Source: a virus. Taken from it: a stretch of DNA of 30,276 nucleotides. Under the pieces are notes generated by a model. That model searched no databases. It saw only the letters and a list, made by a program, of their open reading frames with translations, and had not been told where the DNA came from. Every line of letters begins with the position of its first letter. Position 1 is the stretch's first letter. The DNA is taken from positions 1 to 30,276 of the IMG/VR virus record IMGVR_UViG_3300042090_002588; one strand, given 5' to 3'. Of this stretch, positions 481-15,774 are shown in pieces. Made by a program: the position numbers and the translations under genes.

Positions 481-792
481 ACGATTGAATTCATTAGGCT
501 ATTAGCGTGAGAATCGGCAGATGGACCGGGCATACCCCGCCAAGGTACCGTAATCTTTGGGAATTTACCCTCCCACTTTGAGACACTGGTGAGATTACCC
601 GAATATAAATTTTTTGGGAGTGACCCGAATTTATTATTGTAATTCTTTCAAGCGGGGTAAGTCCGAGACCGCTCTGGTTTATTCAATATTCCAAATTCCA
701 ATATGGAATAATTCCCATTCTGAGACCTCCTCCAACATCCGCCAAAAGATCCGCCATTTGCCTTTCTCTCGGGCTTTTGATATTCTCATTTT
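481..792. other. gene-free stretch with inverted repeats
   Basis: No frame here has a convincing start, a ribosome binding site or protein-like composition. The stretch contains several short inverted repeats: CTCCCA near 570 against TGGGAG near 614; AGCGG near 650 against CCGCT near 670; and ATTCC-AATAT-GGAAT at 695-709. There is also a near-direct repeat of ACCCGAAT around 597 and 625. These could be operators or the upstream part of the tRNA-like transcript that follows. I see no classical terminator with a T-run after the stop codon at 480. Confidence 0.4.
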
Positions 793-897
793 GCGGCGGT
801 GGAGAAACTTTTAGACTCATCCGGAGCCCGGAACCATGGGAATAGAGTGCGCAGCAATACCATGGACTTGTAGGTGTAAATCCTACCCGTCGCACCA
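793..897 (+). ncRNA. tRNA-like element with long variable arm and collapsed anticodon loop
   Basis: A 7-bp acceptor stem forms between GCGGCGG (793-799) and CCGTCGC (887-893, one G-U pair), followed by discriminator A and an encoded CCA (895-897). A D-arm of the Leu/Ser type follows TG (GAG 802-804, CTC 816-818). A perfect 5-bp T-stem (GTAGG 870-874, CCTAC 882-886) closes a 7-nt loop TGTAAAT. The expected anticodon arm is TCCGG/CCGGA (820-832) with only three loop bases (AGC), so no normal 7-nt anticodon loop or U33 exists. The remaining 37 nt form an oversized variable region closed by CCATGG (834-839) and CCATGG (859-864). The D-loop lacks GG and the T-loop lacks TTC, so elbow contacts are altered. 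The 3' end abuts the ribosome binding site of the next gene. It could be a decayed tRNA, or a tRNA mimic used for RNA processing or binding. Ordinary decoding looks unlikely. Confidence 0.6.
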
Positions 898-910
898 AAA
901 GGAGAAATTT

Positions 911-1264
911 ATGAACGAAGGCGTTTTGCGAGTTCCCACGATTATCACCACGAAAGACCAGACCGTCTTACGCATGGCTCGTGTAAAGTTTTCATTTGGG
1001 CTCTGGTTAAAAAATTTCGGGCGTCGTGACTGGGACCCGGATGGTCCGCGGCGGTTCGGTTTCGGACTGGGTCGCTACGAGGTTTTCGAGCCCTTTTCGA
1101 TTCCCAAGGGATCGTCTTTTCGCTTATTCGAACTCGCTATAGTCGATATGAATGTCGATCGGCTTTTGGCCGCTCCCGGCAATCTGGGTCCGAATTTGAA
1201 GTGGACGAAAATCCGCACGTCCGCGCTTGGTCCCAAATTCGAATACGTCGAGGTCGCGGGATAA
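911..1264 (+). CDS. hypothetical protein, 117 aa
   Basis: The start at ATG 911 is set by AAAGGAG seven bases upstream; an ATG further upstream at 836 would run the gene through the tRNA-like element and is rejected. The protein is soluble, rich in Phe, Arg and Gly in its first half (RVKFSFGLWLKNFGRRDWDPDGPRRFGFGLGRYEVF), with a mixed beta-like second half. There are no signal peptide, Cys pairs or catalytic motifs, and I do not recognise a family. It is followed immediately by another small gene at 1265 (TAA, then ATG one base later), so the two are probably one transcript, possibly co-transcribed with the tRNA-like RNA. Confidence 0.6.
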   Translation: MNEGVLRVPTIITTKDQTVLRMARVKFSFGLWLKNFGRRDWDPDGPRRFGFGLGRYEVFEPFSIPKGSSFRLFELAIVDMNVDRLLAAPGNLGPNLKWTKIRTSALGPKFEYVEVAG

Positions 1265-2424: not shown

Positions 2425-2775
2425 ATGGGAAAAATCGGAAAACTCAGGACTCTCGAGGGCAACTGTCTGGCATTTTTCTGCCCCGGTTGTCGTCAAATGC
2501 ACCGGGTTTGGATCGACGCCAAAAACGGATGGACCTTCAACGGTGACTACGATCGACCCACATTCAGTCCGAGCGTCTTGGTCCAAGGCGTGCAACCGAT
2601 GACGGACGACGAATATTCCAGAATCATGAATGGAGAGAAAATAAAGCCTCGACCCATGCGATGCCACACTTTTGTCACCGCAGGGCGAATTCAGTTTCTA
2701 GGAGACTGCCTGCACGCGCTCGCTGGTCAGACCGTCGATTTGCCAAGTCTCCCGCCTGATACAATTGATGAATGA
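2425..2775 (+). CDS. DUF6527-like zinc protein
   Basis: The 116-aa protein resembles the small phage and prophage family DUF6527, whose members carry a CPGC...H motif, a W-x-F-N-G-D segment followed by RPTFSPS, and a C-terminal CHxFVxxGRIQFLxDCxHxLAGQTVDLP. All are visible here: CPGCRQMHRVW, WTFNGDYDRPTFSPSVLV, and CHTFVTAGRIQFLGDCLHALAGQTVDLP. The conserved Cys and His residues suggest zinc binding. The function is unknown. I chose ATG 2425 rather than TTG 2410 because family members start with a short MxKIGKLR-like segment. The stop codon overlaps the ATG of the next gene (ATGA), so translation is coupled to the PDZ protein. Confidence 0.75.
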   Translation: MGKIGKLRTLEGNCLAFFCPGCRQMHRVWIDAKNGWTFNGDYDRPTFSPSVLVQGVQPMTDDEYSRIMNGEKIKPRPMRCHTFVTAGRIQFLGDCLHALAGQTVDLPSLPPDTIDE

Positions 2776-3296
2776 GAAAACTACCTTTCATTCTCTCAGT
2801 CCTTTTGCACTTGTCCTTTTTTCTTTTCATCGCAACCTACCAGGGCGGCGGGGATTCAGGTCATCCAGGCAAAGTCCGTGAAAAGGGCAATCAAGCGCGC
2901 GAGATGCAAAAACCGGTCGACATTGTACCCAAGGTCGTCGATGTTGAAATAATTACAATGGAGAAGGGTCCAGGAAAAATTCCCGCGGTTTCCACTCCGC
3001 CGGAGAAAAAGAGCCCGGTCGGAATCAAGCAATGTGAGGGCGATAAATGGTTCGGCGGCATCGGAATCATGGATGACTGGATGCAAGGGGACGTGATTGA
3101 GCAAGTCTACGCGGGGTACCCCGCGGCGCGAGCCGGTCTCAAAGTCGGCGACAAGATCCTTTATGTGGACGGACTTCCGCCAGACATCGGTCAAATTCGT
3201 GGTGAACCTGGAACGGTAGTGATCCTCACAATCAGCCGGTTGGGCGCGACTTATCAGATCCCAATCGTGCGCGAGAAAATCTGCACCGATCGTTGA
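2772..3296 (+). CDS. membrane-anchored PDZ-domain protein
   Basis: Residues 1-22 are a short basic start plus one hydrophobic helix (KLPFILSVLLHLSFFLFIA), like the N-terminal anchor of TonB or TolA proteins. Residues 25-90 are a Pro/Lys-rich linker. Residues about 92-170 look like a PDZ domain: FGGIGIMDD, then an AARAGLKVGDKILYVDG core typical of HtrA or GspC PDZ domains, then the TVVILTISR strand. The domain would face the periplasm. It lacks a protease domain, but a membrane-anchored trypsin-like protease is encoded separately at 21078. The ATG overlaps the upstream TGA. It is convergent with the minus-strand gene that ends at 3297. Confidence 0.75.
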   Translation: MRKLPFILSVLLHLSFFLFIATYQGGGDSGHPGKVREKGNQAREMQKPVDIVPKVVDVEIITMEKGPGKIPAVSTPPEKKSPVGIKQCEGDKWFGGIGIMDDWMQGDVIEQVYAGYPAARAGLKVGDKILYVDGLPPDIGQIRGEPGTVVILTISRLGATYQIPIVREKICTDR

Positions 3297-8164: not shown

Positions 8165-8334
8165 GTCTGATCTTAATCTTTGGATTTTTACTTTCCACGT
8201 TTGATTTCGGCGTTGCCGTCCACGCCGCCGATCAAGGGGAATACGGGACTGCTCTGGCTTATGGATTCCTTTCTTTTGCGATTGCGATCTTGACGGTTAG
8301 GGTTGTCACTAAAAAGAAAGAGGAAAAATCATGA
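8161..8334 (+). CDS. small membrane protein, 57 aa
   Basis: GTG 8161 overlaps the TGA of the upstream gene, and the TGA here overlaps the ATG of the next one (ATGA), a compact arrangement that supports it as a real gene. The product has two hydrophobic helices: SLILIFGFLLSTFDFGVAVHAA and YGTALAYGFLSFAIAILTVRVV. The tail is basic (TKKKEEKS), so both ends probably lie in the cytoplasm. AAGAAAA gives a weak ribosome binding site. The function is unknown; the size and topology would fit a holin-like or accessory membrane protein, but nothing proves this. Confidence 0.5.
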   Translation: MSLILIFGFLLSTFDFGVAVHAADQGEYGTALAYGFLSFAIAILTVRVVTKKKEEKS

Positions 8335-8564: not shown

Positions 8565-9199
8565 TGAGCGAAGACTACAAAACTCAACTTACCAATGCCC
8601 AAAAAGATCACTCCGAGCACCTAGCGCGGATGTACCATATCACCGGCAATGGTCGGGAAATGATCGAGAAAACCTATCGAGATGGTTATTTGACTGGGGC
8701 AATATACGAGCGGGAAAATCATAGTTCAATGACTCGCCGGGATTACAAAATTCGTCGATTTTTCGACTTCGTGAGCGCGGGAACCTTCGTTTTATTTTTG
8801 ATTTTTTGCTTTGGGCAACTCCCGATCGAAAAAGCTATTGAATCAGTCACCACAAAGTATCAAAAGGAAGCTGAATTCAAGGCAAAACAGGCGGTTTGCG
8901 GCAGAATTGCGATCCAAGCGGAGCCTTACGCTTCCCACTTCGAAGATGCTTTCGTCGCCGGATGCCTCTGGACTTCTAAAATGTGTCTCTTGGACCGATA
9001 TTCGAAAGATCCGCAGGCAAAGACGGTTATAGAAAATCTCTTTGCAGATCCAGATTCTTCTGATATGCTTGATTTCAAAAATCGCTGCTCTGCGGGAGCC
9101 GCCGACCAAATGGTCAAAGGCGTTTACCAGGAGCGAGTCGTTCAAGATTTGTGGACCTCAATGGAATGTGGGGGCGATGCCCCGAAGGATGGAGAATGA
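8564..9199 (+). CDS. single-pass membrane protein, 211 aa
   Basis: The start is GTG 8564, one base overlapping the preceding TAG. Residues 1-65 are charged and cytoplasm-like. One transmembrane helix follows (FFDFVSAGTFVLFLIFCFGQLPI, about 66-88). The C-terminal 120 residues contain six Cys and would lie in the periplasm, where disulfides could form (CGRIA, CLWTSKMCLL, CSAG, MECGG). This fits with the thioredoxin-fold protein encoded directly downstream with an ATGA overlap. No family is recognised. Confidence 0.55.
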   Translation: MSEDYKTQLTNAQKDHSEHLARMYHITGNGREMIEKTYRDGYLTGAIYERENHSSMTRRDYKIRRFFDFVSAGTFVLFLIFCFGQLPIEKAIESVTTKYQKEAEFKAKQAVCGRIAIQAEPYASHFEDAFVAGCLWTSKMCLLDRYSKDPQAKTVIENLFADPDSSDMLDFKNRCSAGAADQMVKGVYQERVVQDLWTSMECGGDAPKDGE

Positions 9200-9564
9200 G
9201 ACTAATAAGTTTTTTGCTGGCTCTGCTAATTTGCTTACCCAGCTATGCGAGTGTTGTAAAAATTACCTCGGCTGAACAATTCAAGAAAGAAATGGCTATT
9301 GCCGGACCTAGGGTGATTCTCTTCTCCGCGAAATGGTGTCCATACTGTCAAGAATTTCACCCGATTTACGAAAAACTAGCGGGTCAAATGTCAATTAGAT
9401 TCTATGAGATCGACGTGGATGAAGTCGGAGTTCAAGTTCCTTATTTGCCCTTCATCGTTGAAGTGAGCAATTGGGGTCAAAAACCATGTCTGGCGGATGC
9501 AAATCCCAGAACCGAAGAAAATGTGACCCTGTCGATTCTCCGCTGCATCAAGGAAAATCTATGA
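9196..9564 (+). CDS. exported thioredoxin-fold protein
   Basis: I choose ATG 9196 because it overlaps the upstream TGA, has GGAGA just before it, and gives a clean Sec signal peptide (MRLISFLLALLICLPSYAS). The mature part has the thioredoxin hallmark FSAKWCPYCQEF with redox Cys at C48 and C51, and a probable cis-Pro in VPYLPFIVEV. Thioredoxin folds with CPYC (glutaredoxin- or DsbA-like) catalyse disulfide exchange. In the periplasm it may act on the Cys-rich membrane protein encoded immediately upstream or on other exported phage proteins. Length 122 aa is normal for the fold. Confidence 0.75.
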   Translation: MRLISFLLALLICLPSYASVVKITSAEQFKKEMAIAGPRVILFSAKWCPYCQEFHPIYEKLAGQMSIRFYEIDVDEVGVQVPYLPFIVEVSNWGQKPCLADANPRTEENVTLSILRCIKENL

Positions 9565-9824: not shown

Positions 9825-10014
9825 CGTGCGTTGGAAACGAGAGGGCAGTTCTGTCGAGATCAAGTATAAGTTTCTCCCATGGTATAAACGATTTTGGTTT
9901 TGGCTGACCGGACGTCAGCCTTCGACGGCTGGAAAAGGTGATTATCTTTTTTATATTCCCAGCAATGAGCCGCCCAAAAAAGGCGAACGAGTTATATGGA
10001 AACCTACGAACTAG
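9817..10014 (+). CDS. hypothetical protein, 65 aa
   Basis: GTG 9817 has GAGGA upstream and overlaps the previous gene by eight bases. The product is basic and aromatic (KYKFLPWYKRFWFWLTGRQ), possibly a membrane-surface amphipathic segment, followed by a GKGDYLFYIPSNEPPKKGERVIW beta hairpin-like end. No family is recognised. Confidence 0.45.
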   Translation: MSDVRWKREGSSVEIKYKFLPWYKRFWFWLTGRQPSTAGKGDYLFYIPSNEPPKKGERVIWKPTN

Positions 10015-10795: not shown

Positions 10796-12658
10796 ATGGA
10801 AGAGACCGAAATCTCAATAGCAGATCACGCGAAGATCATCAAGGATCTCTCTAACTCTGAGTTCGCGGAGGAGTTTGACTATTTTCTTCGAGAAATCGAA
10901 GCTGATCCGATTAAGAATTTCATAGAACACAAATTGTTCATGAATTTCTCACCCACGCCCGCGCAGCGCGTGGCTTTGAAAACCATTTTTTGCCAAGAAC
11001 TCGACGATGAAAAGAAATCCAACGTTTGGATGGAAACCAAGAATCGAGATGGAGATTTTGACCTGGAACTGGTAGAGATGACGGAAGTCGAACTCTACAA
11101 GTACATGACCAATCAAGATTACGATGTAACTCAAATCAAGGTCAAAAACAAAATCAATTTCATCGTCGGTCGCCGGGGAGGAAAAACTACCCTAGCCGCC
11201 ATGCTCGCAATTTATTGCTCTATCATCACGAACTGGAAGCCATTTTTACATAAAACTCCGTTCGCCACAGTTTTGATTTTGTCTCACTCTCGAGAATTTT
11301 CGGATGAGGTACTCGAAATCGTTCGAACGTTGATTGAGCAGAGTCCTGTTCTCAAACGCCTGGTAAATACGACTAAGAAGAACACGGCTTCGACCATGAA
11401 TCTCTCTGTGCCATTTATTGTGGCAGATAAGATCGTCTATTCCCGCGTGCAGATTAAAGTAGGCGCGGCATCTTCCAAGACGACTCGAGGTATCGCAGCT
11501 TGCGCGGTGATCTGCGATGAGATTGCATTCTGGAACTTAGATGAAAACATGAAAGAGACGGACGAGAAGATCCTCCGCGCCGTGCGCCCCGCGATGAAGC
11601 AGTTCGGAAAACGCGCTTATCTTTTCAAACTCTCGTCTCCAGGGATCAAGCAGGGCGTACTCTATAACGAACACCAGAAATGGCTCAAGGGTGTTTTGCC
11701 ACAAAGTTACGTCGTGCTCAAGGCTCCAAGCTGGGTTTGGAATACGATTTTGCCCAAAGCTGAGTTTATCGAAGAATGGGAACTCGATGAAGATGGCTTT
11801 AATACAGAGTACCGGGCGAATTTCGTCGATTCCATGAGTTTTTTCATGCAACCGGAGCATATCGATCTCGCCGTAATGAAAGGCGTAATCTTTCAACCGC
11901 CCGAGCCCAAGAAGTCTCAAGTAGTTTACCGCGCTGCGATCGACGCCGCTTTCAAAAAGGATCATTTCACTTTCTCAGTCGTAGGTCATTTCGAAAACCG
12001 GGTAAAGCAGTACGTCCTTAAAGGCTGGGAAGGTTCCAAGAAAAATCCAGTTCAGGCTAAAGAATGCGCCGAATACATTCGAACCATCTGCAAAGAATAT
12101 GGGATCGACGAGGTCGCCGCCGATCAATTCGCATATGAACCCCTCCGGGAGATCTTCCAACAATACGGCGTTACCCTTGTGGAAAAGACTTTCACGCTTA
12201 CATTCAAGAAGCAGATCTATTACAATTTGAAGCGGCTGATCCACTCTCAACAGATTGACCTTTTGGATCATGAACGAAATATCAAAGAACTCAAAGAACT
12301 CACAGTCGAGCAAACCGGTTCCGGCCAGATTCGGGTCGGGCACCCGCCGGGCGGCAGTGATGACTATGCGGATTCGACAGCCATAGCCGCGTACCTTGCT
12401 GTGGAATCAGCCGGTCAGGTCGGCTATTCCATGGAAACGACCCTGGATGAGGGAGTTACGCCCATAAAAGTGGACATGAATGGTAAGGCTTTCACCGCCC
12501 CGGCTCCCGCAATGTTGTCAGAAAATTTCGGATATTCTGTAAATGACAACTCTCACGAATTCATAAAAGACCCAAAAACCGGAAGGTTAAGACGTCCAGA
12601 CCCCGCGGAAGAGGGCGAAGATGACGATGACGCCGAAGGACCTCAGTTTATCGTTTAA
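10796..12658 (+). CDS. terL: terminase large subunit
   Basis: The DNA-packaging motor ATPase and nuclease, 620 aa, a typical length. Residues about 125-132 (GRRGGKTT) form the Walker A motif, and VICDEIAF (D241, E242) the Walker B with catalytic Glu. The C-terminal RNase-H-like nuclease shows its three acidic ligands in AAIDAAFKKDHF (D383), VAADQFAYEPL (D443) and DDYADSTAIAAYLA (D526). It cuts concatemeric DNA and pumps it into the prohead through the portal encoded just downstream. The end (DPAEEGEDDDDAEGP) is acidic. The start ATG 10796 is preceded by AAGG. No small terminase subunit is recognisable nearby. Confidence 0.93.
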   Translation: MEETEISIADHAKIIKDLSNSEFAEEFDYFLREIEADPIKNFIEHKLFMNFSPTPAQRVALKTIFCQELDDEKKSNVWMETKNRDGDFDLELVEMTEVELYKYMTNQDYDVTQIKVKNKINFIVGRRGGKTTLAAMLAIYCSIITNWKPFLHKTPFATVLILSHSREFSDEVLEIVRTLIEQSPVLKRLVNTTKKNTASTMNLSVPFIVADKIVYSRVQIKVGAASSKTTRGIAACAVICDEIAFWNLDENMKETDEKILRAVRPAMKQFGKRAYLFKLSSPGIKQGVLYNEHQKWLKGVLPQSYVVLKAPSWVWNTILPKAEFIEEWELDEDGFNTEYRANFVDSMSFFMQPEHIDLAVMKGVIFQPPEPKKSQVVYRAAIDAAFKKDHFTFSVVGHFENRVKQYVLKGWEGSKKNPVQAKECAEYIRTICKEYGIDEVAADQFAYEPLREIFQQYGVTLVEKTFTLTFKKQIYYNLKRLIHSQQIDLLDHERNIKELKELTVEQTGSGQIRVGHPPGGSDDYADSTAIAAYLAVESAGQVGYSMETTLDEGVTPIKVDMNGKAFTAPAPAMLSENFGYSVNDNSHEFIKDPKTGRLRRPDPAEEGEDDDDAEGPQFIV

Positions 12659-12662
12659 GTCC

Positions 12663-12690
12663 TGGACAACCCGTCTCATTGTGATATAAT
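12663..12690 (+). promoter_or_regulatory. promoter TGGACA-16-TATAAT with extended -10
   Basis: TGGACA (12663-12668), 16 bases, then TATAAT (12685-12690) with TGA before it (12682). It lies in the short gap after the terminase gene and would give a leader of about 25 nt for the gene at 12722. It is the best promoter match in the head region. Confidence 0.55.
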
Positions 12691-12721
12691 TTTAAGAGAT
12701 TAGAATGACACAGGAGTCGCT

Positions 12722-13111
12722 ATGCCCGCGAGACCATTAAGAATATTGCTAGATTTTCTGACATATGACGGCATTCCCCCAACGAATAACCCAGTGGATG
12801 AGACTCGATCTCTGCGCCGGGTTGAAGAATCTACAGTCTCCGACGCAGTTCGATATCAAACGCAAATTGCGGCTCCTACGACTGCACAGGTTGTGCCATT
12901 AGCGGGCGCGGCATGTGAGTATCTAGCGATTTACTGCGACCAACCGGTTTCAATAAATTTGAACGGGGATTCGACTGCAATCGCATTGACGCCCCAAACA
13001 GCAGGGTGTATGTGCCCAGTGTTTTACCTACGCGGAAACATTACCAGTTTAACGATCACGAACTCAGGAAGCCTAGCGGCAAACGTAGATATTAGATCAG
13101 TACAAGTTTAA
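12722..13111 (+). CDS. putative virion protein, 129 aa
   Basis: ATG 12722 follows CAGGAGT, a good ribosome binding site. The protein is beta-rich with many Thr, Ala, Asn and Leu (EYLAIYCDQPVSINLNGDSTAIALTPQTAGCMCPVFYLRGNITSLTITNSGSLAANVDIRSV), a composition typical of a small beta-sandwich such as head decoration or head-tail joining proteins. No family is recognised. It sits between terminase and portal and has its own promoter, which fits a structural protein made in high amounts. Confidence 0.5.
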   Translation: MPARPLRILLDFLTYDGIPPTNNPVDETRSLRRVEESTVSDAVRYQTQIAAPTTAQVVPLAGAACEYLAIYCDQPVSINLNGDSTAIALTPQTAGCMCPVFYLRGNITSLTITNSGSLAANVDIRSVQV

Positions 13112-13123
13112 GGAACATAACAA

Positions 13124-15310
13124 ATGGCTGAACAACAAAAGCGACCTTCGATTTTCCAAAAAGTCATAGCGGCTACCGACGCTTGGCTCGACACGCAAAT
13201 TATGAAGGGCAAAATGGACGTCGAAAAAGAGATCGAGGACGAATCCGATTTCTTTTACCGTAAATCCGTTGCCAAAGATCAGAGTTTTTTCCTCGGCACT
13301 CAGGGCTATCAAGAAAAACCCTACCGTCTAACTTATGATCATTTGAAGCAAATGAGTCTCAAGGATAGTATCGTTTCTGCCATCATTGCGACTCGTCAGA
13401 ATCAAGTCTCGAATTTCTCGAAGCTGGTTCACACTCTTCATGACCGCGGATTCAAAATCAACATAAAAGATGAGCAACGAATCCTCGAAGAGATCAAAGA
13501 GGAACTGCGCCAAACTCCCGAATTTGCCACAAAAATAGAAGAAAATCCTGAAAGCAAAGAGACCGAAGATCAAGTCAACAACGTTTTAGATCAGGCTGAA
13601 CAAGGCAATGATGTCCGAATCGCGGGCACCGCTGGACCAGACGGCACCGGAGAATCGACTGCCGGAGCCACTGCCGACAATCTAGACGTCAAAAAAGCCT
13701 CAGTTTCCGACGATGATCCTGACAATGTCGCCATGGATGAAACCGAAGGCGAAATGACGCAGGATGTCAATCCGATGAAAGACGCCGCGGCTGGCACAGG
13801 CATTGAAGATGACCCAAGCAAAGATGTAGCTCCGCCGGACCCAGACGAAGCTGAAGCCGAAGAACAAGCCTTAAACTGGAGACTGGAACGTAGAGCCCGC
13901 CAAATCCTAGCAAAACGATTCAGCAAACGCCGCCGCGCGGTCGAGCAATTTATCATCAATTGTGGAAAAGTCAAAGATCGTCCATTTGAATCAAAACGAT
14001 GGAATTTCGATACACTTCTTCGCGCTATCATTCGTGATTCTTTCACCTACGATCAATTCGGTATAGAACGTGTACCTGACAATGCTAATCGTATTCACCA
14101 CGTTGTACCGGTTGATGGTTCTACCATTCGCTTTTCGAGTCCGGAACTGGGTAAGTACAAGACCTATCCCCTTCAATCGAACTACGATTTGATTTACCCT
14201 GAGAAAGAACTCGAAGCCCTCAAAGAAAAAGACGCTTTGGAACTCGATCCCAAACTTCTCGAAGCCAACATGTACAAGTGGGTTCAAGTAATCCGTGGAC
14301 GCATTGAGCGCGCATTTACTGAGGACGAACTTAAAGTGGGTATGAGAAACCCGACCTCGGATGTTTTCAATAACGGTTATGCCGTTTGCGAACTCGAACT
14401 TCTCGTGAATTTGATCACTTCGCATTTGAACACCGAATATTACAACATGGCGTATTTCTCGCAAGGTTTCTCGGCGAAAGGGATTTTGTACCTCAAAGCC
14501 CCGCTCAATCGTAGAAAAATTGAAACAATTCGTCAGCAATGGCAACACATGATCCGCGGCTCCCGCAATTCATTCCAAACTCCGATTTTCGCGGGCATGG
14601 ATGAAGTAAAATGGATTCCGCTCACGCAAAATCACTCAGATATCGAATTCCAGGGCTGGCTCCAATATCTAATCAAAATGATCTGCGCGATCTACCAAAT
14701 CGATCCTCAAGAAATTGGTATTGGCATGAAAGAGCAGGGCGGCAGCGGTGCGGGCGGTCTCTCGGGCGATAATACCCAAGAAAAAATCGATCTTTCGCGC
14801 GACAAAGGTTTATATCCACTTTTAAGATTCCTCGAGAACTTCATCAATGTGAACATCATCGATGATTTCGATTCTGATTTCTTCTTGGAATTTGTTGGTC
14901 TGAAAGAAGAGTCCACAAAAGAAGCCCTTGATCGTCAAAAGGCTGAAGCAGACTTTAAAAAGACCGTGAATGAGATCCGCGCCGAAGATGGTCTCCCGCC
15001 GCTCCCCGGCATGGACGATATTATCTTGAACGCGATCTACTTCCAGTGGTATCAGGCATATAGCAAAAAGGCTCAAAAGCAAGCAGAACAAGCCCAACAA
15101 TCGGCTCTAGCCGCGGGCGCGTTGACTGATGCGGGCGGACCCGGCGGCGGAGAACCGCCCGAAGGTGCCGCGGAACCTCATGTTGCGGATCAGCTTGAAA
15201 ACCAATCGGGAGACATGGTAAACTCCCAAGTGGAAGCCCAAGGGACTCCTCCGAAGCCTCCACCGCCCATGGCTAAATCTGTAAAAGTTGAATACTACAG
15301 GATAGGCTAA
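13124..15310 (+). CDS. portal protein
   Basis: The 728-aa protein forms the dodecameric ring at the head vertex through which DNA enters and leaves. It follows terminase and precedes the minor head protein. Visible portal features: an N-terminal SIVSAIIATRQNQVSNFSKL segment, the HHVVPVDGSTIRF strand, the long central helix region (LLVNLITSHLNTEYYNMAYFSQGFSAKGILYL) and IRQQWQHMIRGSRNSFQTPIF, and KMICAIYQIDPQEIGIGMK. These match the PF04860/HK97-like portal pattern of Y/N-x-x-F-x-x-G-x-x-x-x-G-I-L and I-P-P/D-x-x-I-G. Residues about 130-250 are an Asp/Glu-rich insertion. The C-terminal 80 residues are Gly/Pro/Gln-rich. Start ATG 13124 with AAGGAAC. Confidence 0.87.
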   Translation: MAEQQKRPSIFQKVIAATDAWLDTQIMKGKMDVEKEIEDESDFFYRKSVAKDQSFFLGTQGYQEKPYRLTYDHLKQMSLKDSIVSAIIATRQNQVSNFSKLVHTLHDRGFKINIKDEQRILEEIKEELRQTPEFATKIEENPESKETEDQVNNVLDQAEQGNDVRIAGTAGPDGTGESTAGATADNLDVKKASVSDDDPDNVAMDETEGEMTQDVNPMKDAAAGTGIEDDPSKDVAPPDPDEAEAEEQALNWRLERRARQILAKRFSKRRRAVEQFIINCGKVKDRPFESKRWNFDTLLRAIIRDSFTYDQFGIERVPDNANRIHHVVPVDGSTIRFSSPELGKYKTYPLQSNYDLIYPEKELEALKEKDALELDPKLLEANMYKWVQVIRGRIERAFTEDELKVGMRNPTSDVFNNGYAVCELELLVNLITSHLNTEYYNMAYFSQGFSAKGILYLKAPLNRRKIETIRQQWQHMIRGSRNSFQTPIFAGMDEVKWIPLTQNHSDIEFQGWLQYLIKMICAIYQIDPQEIGIGMKEQGGSGAGGLSGDNTQEKIDLSRDKGLYPLLRFLENFINVNIIDDFDSDFFLEFVGLKEESTKEALDRQKAEADFKKTVNEIRAEDGLPPLPGMDDIILNAIYFQWYQAYSKKAQKQAEQAQQSALAAGALTDAGGPGGGEPPEGAAEPHVADQLENQSGDMVNSQVEAQGTPPKPPPPMAKSVKVEYYRIG

Positions 15311-15774
15311 TGAAGATATGCACGAGTTGCAATTTAGAAAAATCATTCGAAGAGTTCCATAAAGATAAAAAGGGACGATTCGGCTTGAGAGCTATTTGCA
15401 AAAAGTGTGCGAAGGACAAAATTACATTTTGGCAAAAAACAAACAAAGAAAAAGTTTCCTTAAGAGATAAAAAGTGGAGAACTCAAAATCACCTCAAATA
15501 TCTTCAAATTCAAGGCAATTATGCCAAAACTCATAAGCCGCAGCGTAATGCGATAAATGCTAAACGAAGGGCTGTTCTCAAAAATGCTATACCTAAATGG
15601 GCTGACTTAGAAAAAATCAAAGAATTTTACGAAAAATGTCCACCAGGCTTTCATGTAGATCACATAATACCTTTACAAAATAAAGTAGTTTGCGGTTTGC
15701 ATACGATTGAAAATCTCCAATATTTACCGGCTTCGGTTAATATTTCAAAAGGTAATCGCCTATGGCAAACGTAA
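15310..15774 (+). CDS. HNH endonuclease
   Basis: The 154-aa protein has an N-terminal zinc-binding pair, CTSC (C4, C7) and CKKC (C30, C33), and a C-terminal HNH nuclease core: GFHVDHIIPLQ (H115, D117, H118), HTIENLQYLP (N135), SVNISKGN (N144, K147). This is the free-standing type often found inside phage structural gene clusters. Its ATG overlaps the portal stop (TAATG), and its end overlaps the start of the next gene by 13 bases. The coding sequence is visibly more A-rich than its neighbours, which suggests insertion as a mobile homing-type element. Some HNH proteins of this family also help terminase cutting, so a packaging role is the alternative. Confidence 0.85.
   Translation: MKICTSCNLEKSFEEFHKDKKGRFGLRAICKKCAKDKITFWQKTNKEKVSLRDKKWRTQNHLKYLQIQGNYAKTHKPQRNAINAKRRAVLKNAIPKWADLEKIKEFYEKCPPGFHVDHIIPLQNKVVCGLHTIENLQYLPASVNISKGNRLWQT

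What the first reader, a model, noticed from the sequence alone, without database searches (positions are those of the whole stretch)
793..897. tRNA-like RNA with CCA but no decoding anticodon loop
The acceptor stem, D-arm, T-stem and encoded CCA are well preserved, yet the anticodon arm is a 5-bp stem with a 3-nt loop and the variable region is about 37 nt, closed by two CCATGG sequences. D-loop GG and T-loop TTC, which normally touch, are both changed. A simple dead tRNA should first lose stem pairing; here stems are kept and only loops changed. It could be a tRNA mimic that recruits a processing enzyme, a CCA-adding enzyme or a synthetase, or that marks the 5' end of the mRNA that follows 14 bases later.
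Basis: partly seen in the sequence, partly recalled or inferred. Interest (0 to 1): 0.65.

Follow-up and report, generated by a model that had tools for sequence, protein, structure and literature searches.

The report
Phage leucine-tRNA gene that cannot decode
A virus of bacteria carries a gene shaped like a leucine transfer RNA, complete with all its stems and CCA tail, whose codon-reading loop is gone and whose two corner loops have been rewritten, so it is either a freshly broken tRNA or, as a look-alike pair in two other phages suggests, an RNA kept for some job outside protein synthesis.

Summary
Window 793-897 folds as a full cloverleaf: 20 canonical stem pairs (19 Watson-Crick, one G-U), a 6-bp variable-arm stem and encoded A73-CCA. 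It is unique in the window and absent from 60 randomised windows. ARAGORN and Rfam tRNA (E<=10) both miss it. No normal anticodon arm exists in the core, even after removing any contiguous stretch.
It is tRNA-Leu-derived: every Leu tRNA compared matches its acceptor/D/T arms better than any non-Leu tRNA. It keeps U8, A14, A15-U48, U54, A58, C2-G71 and A73. It has lost G18G19, U55 and C56, and its anticodon loop is 3 nt.
Changed corner loops alone are not evidence of death or of a mimic. In tRNA-rich phage contigs, 17 of 22 assignable altered elbows are re-paired (A18-G55 with C19-G56 or U19-A56). In the window they are not re-paired.
Scanning 2.9 million viral contigs found two similar 106-nt RNAs (L071, L077) in phage tRNA arrays, with a long variable arm and no U33. 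Between them, all five varying stem pairs stay paired, three by double change.
So non-decoding tRNA-Leu-like RNAs appear to be maintained in some phages. Whether the window copy is such an RNA or a recent relic is undecided; it is a singleton.

The parts
793..897 (+). whole tRNA-Leu-derived, non-decoding RNA gene (105 nt, CCA encoded)
   Evidence: fold; descriptor unique in window; Leu affinity; no ARAGORN/RF00005 match
793..799 (+). acceptor stem 5' strand GCGGCGG (pairs with 887-893 CCGTCGC; C2-G71 kept, G4-U69 wobble)
802..818 (+). D-arm GAG-AAACTTTTAGA-CTC; Leu-type loop with G18G19 replaced by TT at 810-811; A14 and A15 kept
   Evidence: alignment to Leu tRNAs; stem predicted in the isolated fold but not with flanks
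820..832 (+). hairpin at the anticodon-arm position, TCCGG-AGC-CCGGA: 5 bp, 3-nt loop, no anticodon, no U33
   Evidence: no contiguous deletion restores a normal arm
833..869 (+). enlarged variable region; CCATGG 834-839 pairs with CCATGG 860-865, loop of 20 nt
870..886 (+). T-arm GTAGG-TGTAAAT-CCTAC; U54 and A58 kept, U55 to G and C56 to U (876-877); A51-U63 pair
887..897 (+). acceptor 3' strand, discriminator A (894) and encoded CCA (895-897)
899..904 (+). Shine-Dalgarno-like AAGGAG of the next gene, starting two bases after CCA
   Evidence: inspection
911..1264 (+). downstream gene, 117 aa, no relative found
613..629 (+). terminator-like hairpin between the upstream gene (ends 480) and the element
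   Evidence: 3 sites found, 1.6 expected in shuffles: weak

Best explanation
The element is a phage-borne tRNA-Leu gene that has left translation and persists as a structured non-decoding RNA. Shown: its class-II tRNA-Leu origin, complete stems and CCA, missing anticodon loop, uncoupled elbow (U18 against G55, U19 against U56), and the existence of a similar non-decoding 106-nt tRNA-Leu-like RNA in two other phages whose stem changes preserve pairing while its anticodon-position loop varies freely. Inferred: it is co-transcribed with the 117-aa gene, cut by RNase P at 793 and trimmed at the CCA (897), yielding a stable 105-nt RNA. Because it lacks the elbow contacts that LeuRS, the ribosome and other tRNA binders use, it would be poorly charged and kept off the ribosome. 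Its likeliest use is to occupy or feed an enzyme that reads only the acceptor/T-stem and CCA end. Maintenance by selection in this particular phage is inferred, not shown.
For: Leu tRNAs all rank above every other isoacceptor on the acceptor+D and T+acceptor arms; D-arm alignment to Leu. All 20 stem pairs intact plus a 6-bp variable stem. No normal anticodon arm, with or without excising a stretch. Viral-contig pattern scan for Leu-like RNAs with both elbow sides changed: 12 loci where about 0.5 are expected by my own estimate. Two of these (L071 10901-11006, L077 10302-10407) match the window's architecture: 106 nt, long variable arm, A73-CCA, no U33, missed by ARAGORN and RF00005. Between them 5 stem pairs vary and all stay paired, 3 by changes on both sides, while the 7-nt loop changes from CGGCAAA to CAGTGAG. 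In L077's phage three separate Leu tRNAs with canonical D/T loops exist, so the RNA is not its decoding tRNA-Leu.
Against: The window copy is a singleton: no match by pattern in viral contigs or genome contigs (the one genome hit is not tRNA-like), none by DNA similarity in plasmids, and only a generic T-arm match in phages; relatives of the phage lack the whole region. A covariance model from L071+L077 scores the window no better (39.7 bits) than an ordinary tRNA-Leu (39.2), so homology with that pair beyond shared Leu ancestry is not shown. Only two sequences carry the covariation, and 63 of 500 shuffles do as well. Their T-stem has two U-U mismatches and the minimum-energy fold of L071's RNA is not the cloverleaf. 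No expression data.
Confidence: 0.5

Rival explanations
1. A recently dead phage tRNA-Leu. A tRNA-Leu with an already altered elbow lost about 4 nt of its anticodon loop and gained length in the variable arm; the stems are intact only because too little time has passed. No function.
For: Singleton, absent from relatives. Phage tRNAs with altered elbows and normal anticodons exist, so elbow change need not be part of the decay. A single small deletion explains the 5-bp stem with a 3-nt loop. ACCATGG occurs twice, flanking a 20-nt stretch in the variable arm, compatible with an insertion or duplication.
Against: All 20 pairs plus the variable stem intact: chance 0.035 at 10% and 0.001 at 20% neutral substitution. 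The elbow of other altered phage tRNAs is usually re-paired (17 of 22) but here it is not, which implies further change after leaving translation with no stem damage. L071/L077 show that such RNAs can be maintained.
Confidence: 0.38
2. A cis-acting processing signal: the cloverleaf recruits RNase P and 3' tRNA nucleases so that the mRNA of the 117-aa gene starts at 898, just before its Shine-Dalgarno sequence (tRNA punctuation).
For: The CCA ends two bases before AAGGAG and 13 bases before ATG 911.
Against: tRNA genes in compact phage genomes often abut genes. L071 and L077 lie inside tRNA arrays, not directly before a gene start. RNase P and RNase Z both contact the elbow (PMC4810234), which is damaged here. 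In the longer context the D-stem is lost from the minimum-energy fold.
Confidence: 0.08
3. A tRNA gene interrupted by a short intron; splicing would restore a decoding anticodon loop.
For: A related phage (G001/L031) and L071's phage appear to have tRNAs with inserts of a few tens of nt in the anticodon arm (by inspection).
Against: No contiguous deletion of 0-32 nt from the core leaves a 5-bp stem with a 7-nt loop bearing U33 and R37; 10% of shuffled cores would allow one. No group I intron was called.
Confidence: 0.03
4. An integration site (attP) copied from the 3' end of a host tRNA gene.
For: Phages often integrate at tRNA 3' ends (general knowledge).
Against: An attP core should match a working host tRNA, but the T-loop TGTAAAT is non-canonical, a 5' half is also present, and none of the proteins searched in the window is an integrase. 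The capsid is SPO1-like, a group that is mostly virulent (general knowledge).
Confidence: 0.01

Closest known systems
Bacterial and phage tRNA-Leu (class II)
   Same: 7-bp acceptor with C2-G71, A73, 3-bp D-stem, U8, A14, A15-U48, loop ending AGAC, U54, A58, CCA; best-scoring isoacceptor
   Different: No anticodon loop, no G18G19 or U55/C56, variable region 37 nt with a 20-nt loop
Staphylococcal non-proteinogenic tRNA-Gly (cell-wall donors)
   Same: G18G19 replaced by UU (there UU or CU) and an A51-U63 pair that weakens EF-Tu binding (PMC4052509)
   Different: Those keep a Gly anticodon and are class I; the window element has no anticodon and no partner enzyme was seen among the proteins searched; works-like analogy only
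Truncated E. coli tRNA-Leu without anticodon and variable arms (laboratory molecules, reviewed in PMC9976931)
   Same: Leu scaffold without an anticodon can still be charged by LeuRS
   Different: Charging there needs intact D/T-loop contacts, which the window element lacks
Phage T4 stable RNAs rnaC and rnaD
   Same: Stable non-tRNA RNAs next to phage tRNA genes
   Different: Not a full cloverleaf with CCA; rnaC has a normal TTCGAAT T-loop
L071/L077 tRNA-Leu-like RNAs (unnamed, found here)
   Same: 105-106 nt, Leu-type D-arm, G55, long variable arm, A73-CCA, no decodable loop
   Different: 7-nt loop without U33; 19-56 complementary (U-A); T-stem weaker; homology beyond Leu ancestry not shown
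Allo-tRNA and irregular tRNAs of soil metatranscriptomes, tRNA-Pyl (PMC7609411)
   Same: Natural tRNAs departing from canonical loops; some irregular ones could not be used or charged in E. coli; tRNA-Pyl lacks G18G19 and TPsiC
   Different: Allo-tRNAs have 8/4 or 9/3 acceptor/T geometry and anticodons; tRNA-Pyl has a small D-loop and a 6-bp anticodon stem; the window element is 7/5 with no anticodon loop

Membership tests
tRNA-Leu (decoding) | 7-bp acceptor, A73 and CCA | tested here: met
tRNA-Leu (decoding) | Leu-type D-arm and closest similarity to Leu isoacceptors | tested here: met
tRNA-Leu (decoding) | 7-nt anticodon loop with U33 and a Leu anticodon | tested here: not met
   3-nt loop; no alternative arm
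tRNA-Leu (decoding) | G18-U55 and G19-C56 elbow pairs, or a re-paired equivalent | tested here: not met
   U18/G55 and U19/U56; compare
tRNA-Leu (decoding) | recognised by tRNA models | tested here: not met
   ARAGORN; RF00005
tRNA-Leu (decoding) | leucylation by LeuRS | not testable with these tools
   needs a charging assay
Staphylococcal non-proteinogenic tRNA-Gly | G18G19 replaced by UU or CU | tested here: met
   PMC4052509
Staphylococcal non-proteinogenic tRNA-Gly | Gly identity and anticodon | tested here: not met
   Leu-type, no anticodon
Staphylococcal non-proteinogenic tRNA-Gly | weak EF-Tu binding pairs A49-U65 and A51-U63 | tested here: inconclusive
   A51-U63 present, 49-65 is G-C
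L071/L077-type RNA | about 105 nt, long variable arm, elbow changed, G55, A73-CCA, no decodable loop | tested here: met
L071/L077-type RNA | specific homology beyond Leu ancestry | tested here: inconclusive
   model R1: window 39.7 bits, ordinary Leu 39.2 bits
tmRNA | tRNA-like domain with tag frame, Rfam/ARAGORN match | tested here: not met
tRNA-Sec or allo-tRNA | 8/4, 8/5 or 9/3 acceptor/T geometry | tested here: not met
   7/5 geometry
Intron-containing tRNA | excision restores a normal anticodon arm | tested here: not met

The most novel reading that the evidence does not exclude
Phages maintain a class of non-decoding tRNA-Leu-like RNAs (105-106 nt, long variable arm, rewritten elbow, A73-CCA) that act outside translation, for example by occupying an enzyme that reads only the acceptor end; the window element is a member, and the class arose against a background of natural, covarying rewiring of the G18-Psi55/G19-C56 elbow in phage tRNAs.
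Probability: 0.35. Interest if true: 0.72.

Novelty: new variant of a known kind. Interest (0 to 1): 0.5.

Why it matters
The function of phage tRNAs is a long-standing question, and current answers (codon supply, escape from anticodon nucleases, PMC10264068) assume that they decode. A tRNA-Leu scaffold kept structurally intact without an anticodon would need another explanation, and the Leu scaffold is one whose synthetase ignores the anticodon. The survey also suggests that the near-universal elbow pairs can be swapped naturally (G19-C56 to C19-G56, U-A or A-U; 18-55 to A-G) in phage tRNAs with normal anticodon loops. That bears on tRNA detection and on host factors that read the elbow.

Tried and rejected
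(1) Exact and degenerate pattern scans for close copies: 27-mer T-arm (none); D-loop TTTTAGAC...TGTAAATC (none); TTTAGAC...GTGNNANTC (9 hits, none with a tRNA Leu D-arm on inspection); TT/TG form in genomes and viruses (one non-tRNA hit, none). A first version of one pattern had a spacing error and missed the window itself. (2) Relatives of the phage by terminase and capsid: the 1-10.4 kb part is not shared (its first version failed on a file-name error). (3) Intron hypothesis. (4) T4 rnaC/rnaD as homologues. (5) The 28/32 match to a Klebsiella phage 'tRNA-Leu' is a degenerate tRNA-Gln(CUG) sharing a generic T-arm. (6) Model R1 as proof of kinship with L071/L077: rejected because ordinary tRNA-Leu scores the same. 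(7) Other Rfam families at E<=5-10 were chance. (8) A second acceptor/T-like match at 9863-9961 is AT-rich without D or anticodon arms.

Full report
WHAT IS THERE. The 105 nt at 793-897 form a complete cloverleaf with encoded A73-CCA. Twenty canonical stem pairs are all intact, 19 Watson-Crick and one G-U. At the anticodon-arm position there is a 5-bp hairpin with loop AGC, and at the variable-arm position CCATGG pairs with CCATGG around a 20-nt loop. Energy alone is only mildly unusual (z = -1.76), but the stem arrangement plus CCA occurs once in the window and never in 60 randomised windows. In a fold of 770-960 the acceptor, anticodon-position, variable and T stems remain and the D-stem does not. 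ARAGORN finds nothing and Rfam's tRNA model does not match even at E = 10.

WHAT IT COMES FROM. Aligned with real tRNAs, the acceptor/D half and the T/acceptor half together match Leu tRNAs from a bacterium and from phages better than any other isoacceptor tested. The D-arm TGGAGAAACTTTTAGACTC is the Leu D-arm TGGNGRAANTGGTAGACNC with GG (18,19) changed to TT; the T-loop TGTAAAT is TTCAAAT with T55 to G and C56 to T. U8, A14, A15-U48, U54, A58, C2-G71 and A73 are kept. The contig is a fragment of a tailed phage with an SPO1-like capsid protein at about 29% identity to cultured phages. Closer environmental relatives exist but none shares the first 10.4 kb, where the element lies.

IS THE CHANGED ELBOW STRANGE? 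Less than it seems. A pattern for Leu-like tRNAs in which both elbow sides are changed found 12 viral loci where I expected about 0.5 by chance (expectation is my own estimate). Ten of them are ARAGORN-recognised tRNAs with normal anticodon loops and, in most, positions 18-19 = AC with T-loop TGGRA[AG]T, i.e. A18-G55 and C19-G56. Among 147 distinct tRNAs from these contigs plus Tunturiibacter phage Tunturi_5 and a few other phages, 24 had non-TTC T-loops by my rule. Of 22 with an assignable rule, 17 have in the D-loop the dinucleotide predicted by re-pairing (GT with TTA, GA with TTT, GC with TTG, AG with TGC, AC with TGG), against 11.4 expected when D-loops are permuted (P = 0.006). The sample is biased, because the contigs were chosen by an elbow pattern, and the D-loop assignment is heuristic. 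The direction is still clear: phage tRNAs rewire the elbow and usually keep 19-56 complementary. The window element does not: U18 faces G55 and U19 faces U56. Its elbow appears uncoupled.

A SIMILAR RNA ELSEWHERE. Two of the 12 loci, L071 10901-11006 (+) and L077 10302-10407 (-), are not recognised by ARAGORN or Rfam. They are 106 nt, Leu-like, with T-loop TGAAAAT, A73-CCA, a 7-bp variable stem with a 17-nt loop, and a 7-nt loop without U33 at the anticodon position (CGGCAAA, CAGTGAG). Both lie in phage tRNA arrays. The two arrays are otherwise rearranged, and the element is one of about a dozen conserved islands, most of them at tRNAs. Between the two copies five stem pairs vary and all remain paired, three by changes on both sides; every 1-3 base slip of the structure gives 0 double changes. 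With two sequences the column-shuffle control is weak (63/500). L077's phage also carries three Leu tRNAs with canonical T-loops and normal anticodons (TAA, TAG, CAA), so the odd RNA is not its decoding tRNA-Leu. The window element aligns to this pair almost without gaps. But a covariance model of the pair scores the window at 39.7 bits, no better than an ordinary tRNA-Leu at 39.2. Common architecture is shown; common descent apart from Leu ancestry is not. The T-stem of L071/L077 has two U-U mismatches and their minimum-energy folds are not clean cloverleaves, which is a caution.

HOW IT MOST LIKELY WORKS. Steps shown: Leu ancestry; loss of decoding; retention of all stems and CCA; elbow uncoupled. 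Steps inferred: transcription with the 117-aa gene, whose Shine-Dalgarno sequence begins two bases after the CCA; RNase P cleavage at 793 and 3' maturation at 897; a stable product. From published LeuRS work, the anticodon and variable arms are dispensable for charging, but A73 and the G18:U55/G19-C56 contacts are not (PMC9976931), so I expect poor leucylation. Elbow loss should also weaken RNase P, RNase Z and ribosome contacts (PMC4810234). UU at 18-19 and A51-U63 are shared with staphylococcal tRNA-Gly species that avoid EF-Tu and serve cell-wall synthesis (PMC4052509): a works-like parallel, not membership. A free RNA that still presents an acceptor/T-stem and CCA could occupy or feed an enzyme reading only that end. 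No candidate enzyme was found among the window proteins searched.

RELIC OR RNA? For function: intact stems (neutral survival chance 0.035 at 10% and 0.001 at 20% substitution), the extra variable stem, and the L071/L077 precedent. For relic: it is a singleton, and one small anticodon-loop deletion in an elbow-altered phage tRNA would suffice. I put 0.5 on a maintained non-decoding RNA and 0.38 on a recent relic. An intron is contradicted: no contiguous excision restores a normal anticodon arm.

NOVELTY. Non-canonical and non-translational tRNAs are known, so this is a new variant of a known kind. I found no paper in the held library describing anticodon-less tRNA-Leu-like RNAs in phages or natural 19-56 swaps in phage tRNAs. 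The library is incomplete and that is not proof of absence.

Noticed in passing
L068, L070, L072, L075, L067, L084-L094 (tRNA arrays of viral contigs and phage Tunturi_5): Phage tRNAs with normal anticodons but swapped elbow pairs: A18-G55, C19-G56, U19-A56, A19-U56; 17 of 22 altered T-loops have the matching D-loop dinucleotide (permutation P = 0.006).
   Followed up: partly
L071:10901-11006 (+) and L077:10302-10407 (-): 106-nt tRNA-Leu-like RNA without U33, long variable arm, stem changes that keep pairing between two phages; missed by ARAGORN and Rfam.
   Followed up: partly
L071:10063-10157 and 12609-12773 against L077:12264-12358 and 8165-8329: Two further conserved stretches in the rearranged tRNA arrays (92% and 81% identity) not called as tRNAs by ARAGORN in L071; possible unknown RNAs.
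   Followed up: no
L043:1954-2032 and 112 Slopekvirus-type phage records: tRNA-Gln(CUG) with T-loop TGCAAAT and degenerate D-arm, annotated as tRNA-Gln, tRNA-Leu pseudogene or nothing; near-identical in 112 Klebsiella and related phage records.
   Followed up: partly
L031:1501-1620 (G001, a relative of the window phage) and L071:9874-9980: tRNAs that appear to carry an insert of a few tens of nt in the anticodon arm, near the classical intron position in L031; intron, insertion or relic unknown.
   Followed up: no
L067, L069, L073, L074: 89-nt class-II tRNA with CTA (amber) anticodon and A18-G55/C19-G56 elbow in four related viral contigs; ARAGORN calls it tRNA-Pyl only because of the anticodon.
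   Followed up: no
L010:15820-16228: A relative of the window phage (114 kb contig) encodes a tmRNA with tag ANDNVVSLNAFRARKNVVSLQHAA, suggesting a bacterial host.
   Followed up: no
window 481-792: Non-coding leader folds more stably than all 100 shuffles (z = -2.87); terminator-like hairpin at 613-629.
   Followed up: no
window 9863-9961: Second acceptor/T-arm-like pairing with CCCA end, AT-rich, next to another CCATGG and an inverted repeat; probably chance.
   Followed up: no
window 2772-3296, 9151-9564, 15310-15774: PDZ-domain, thioredoxin-like and HNH-like proteins encoded by the phage.
   Followed up: no
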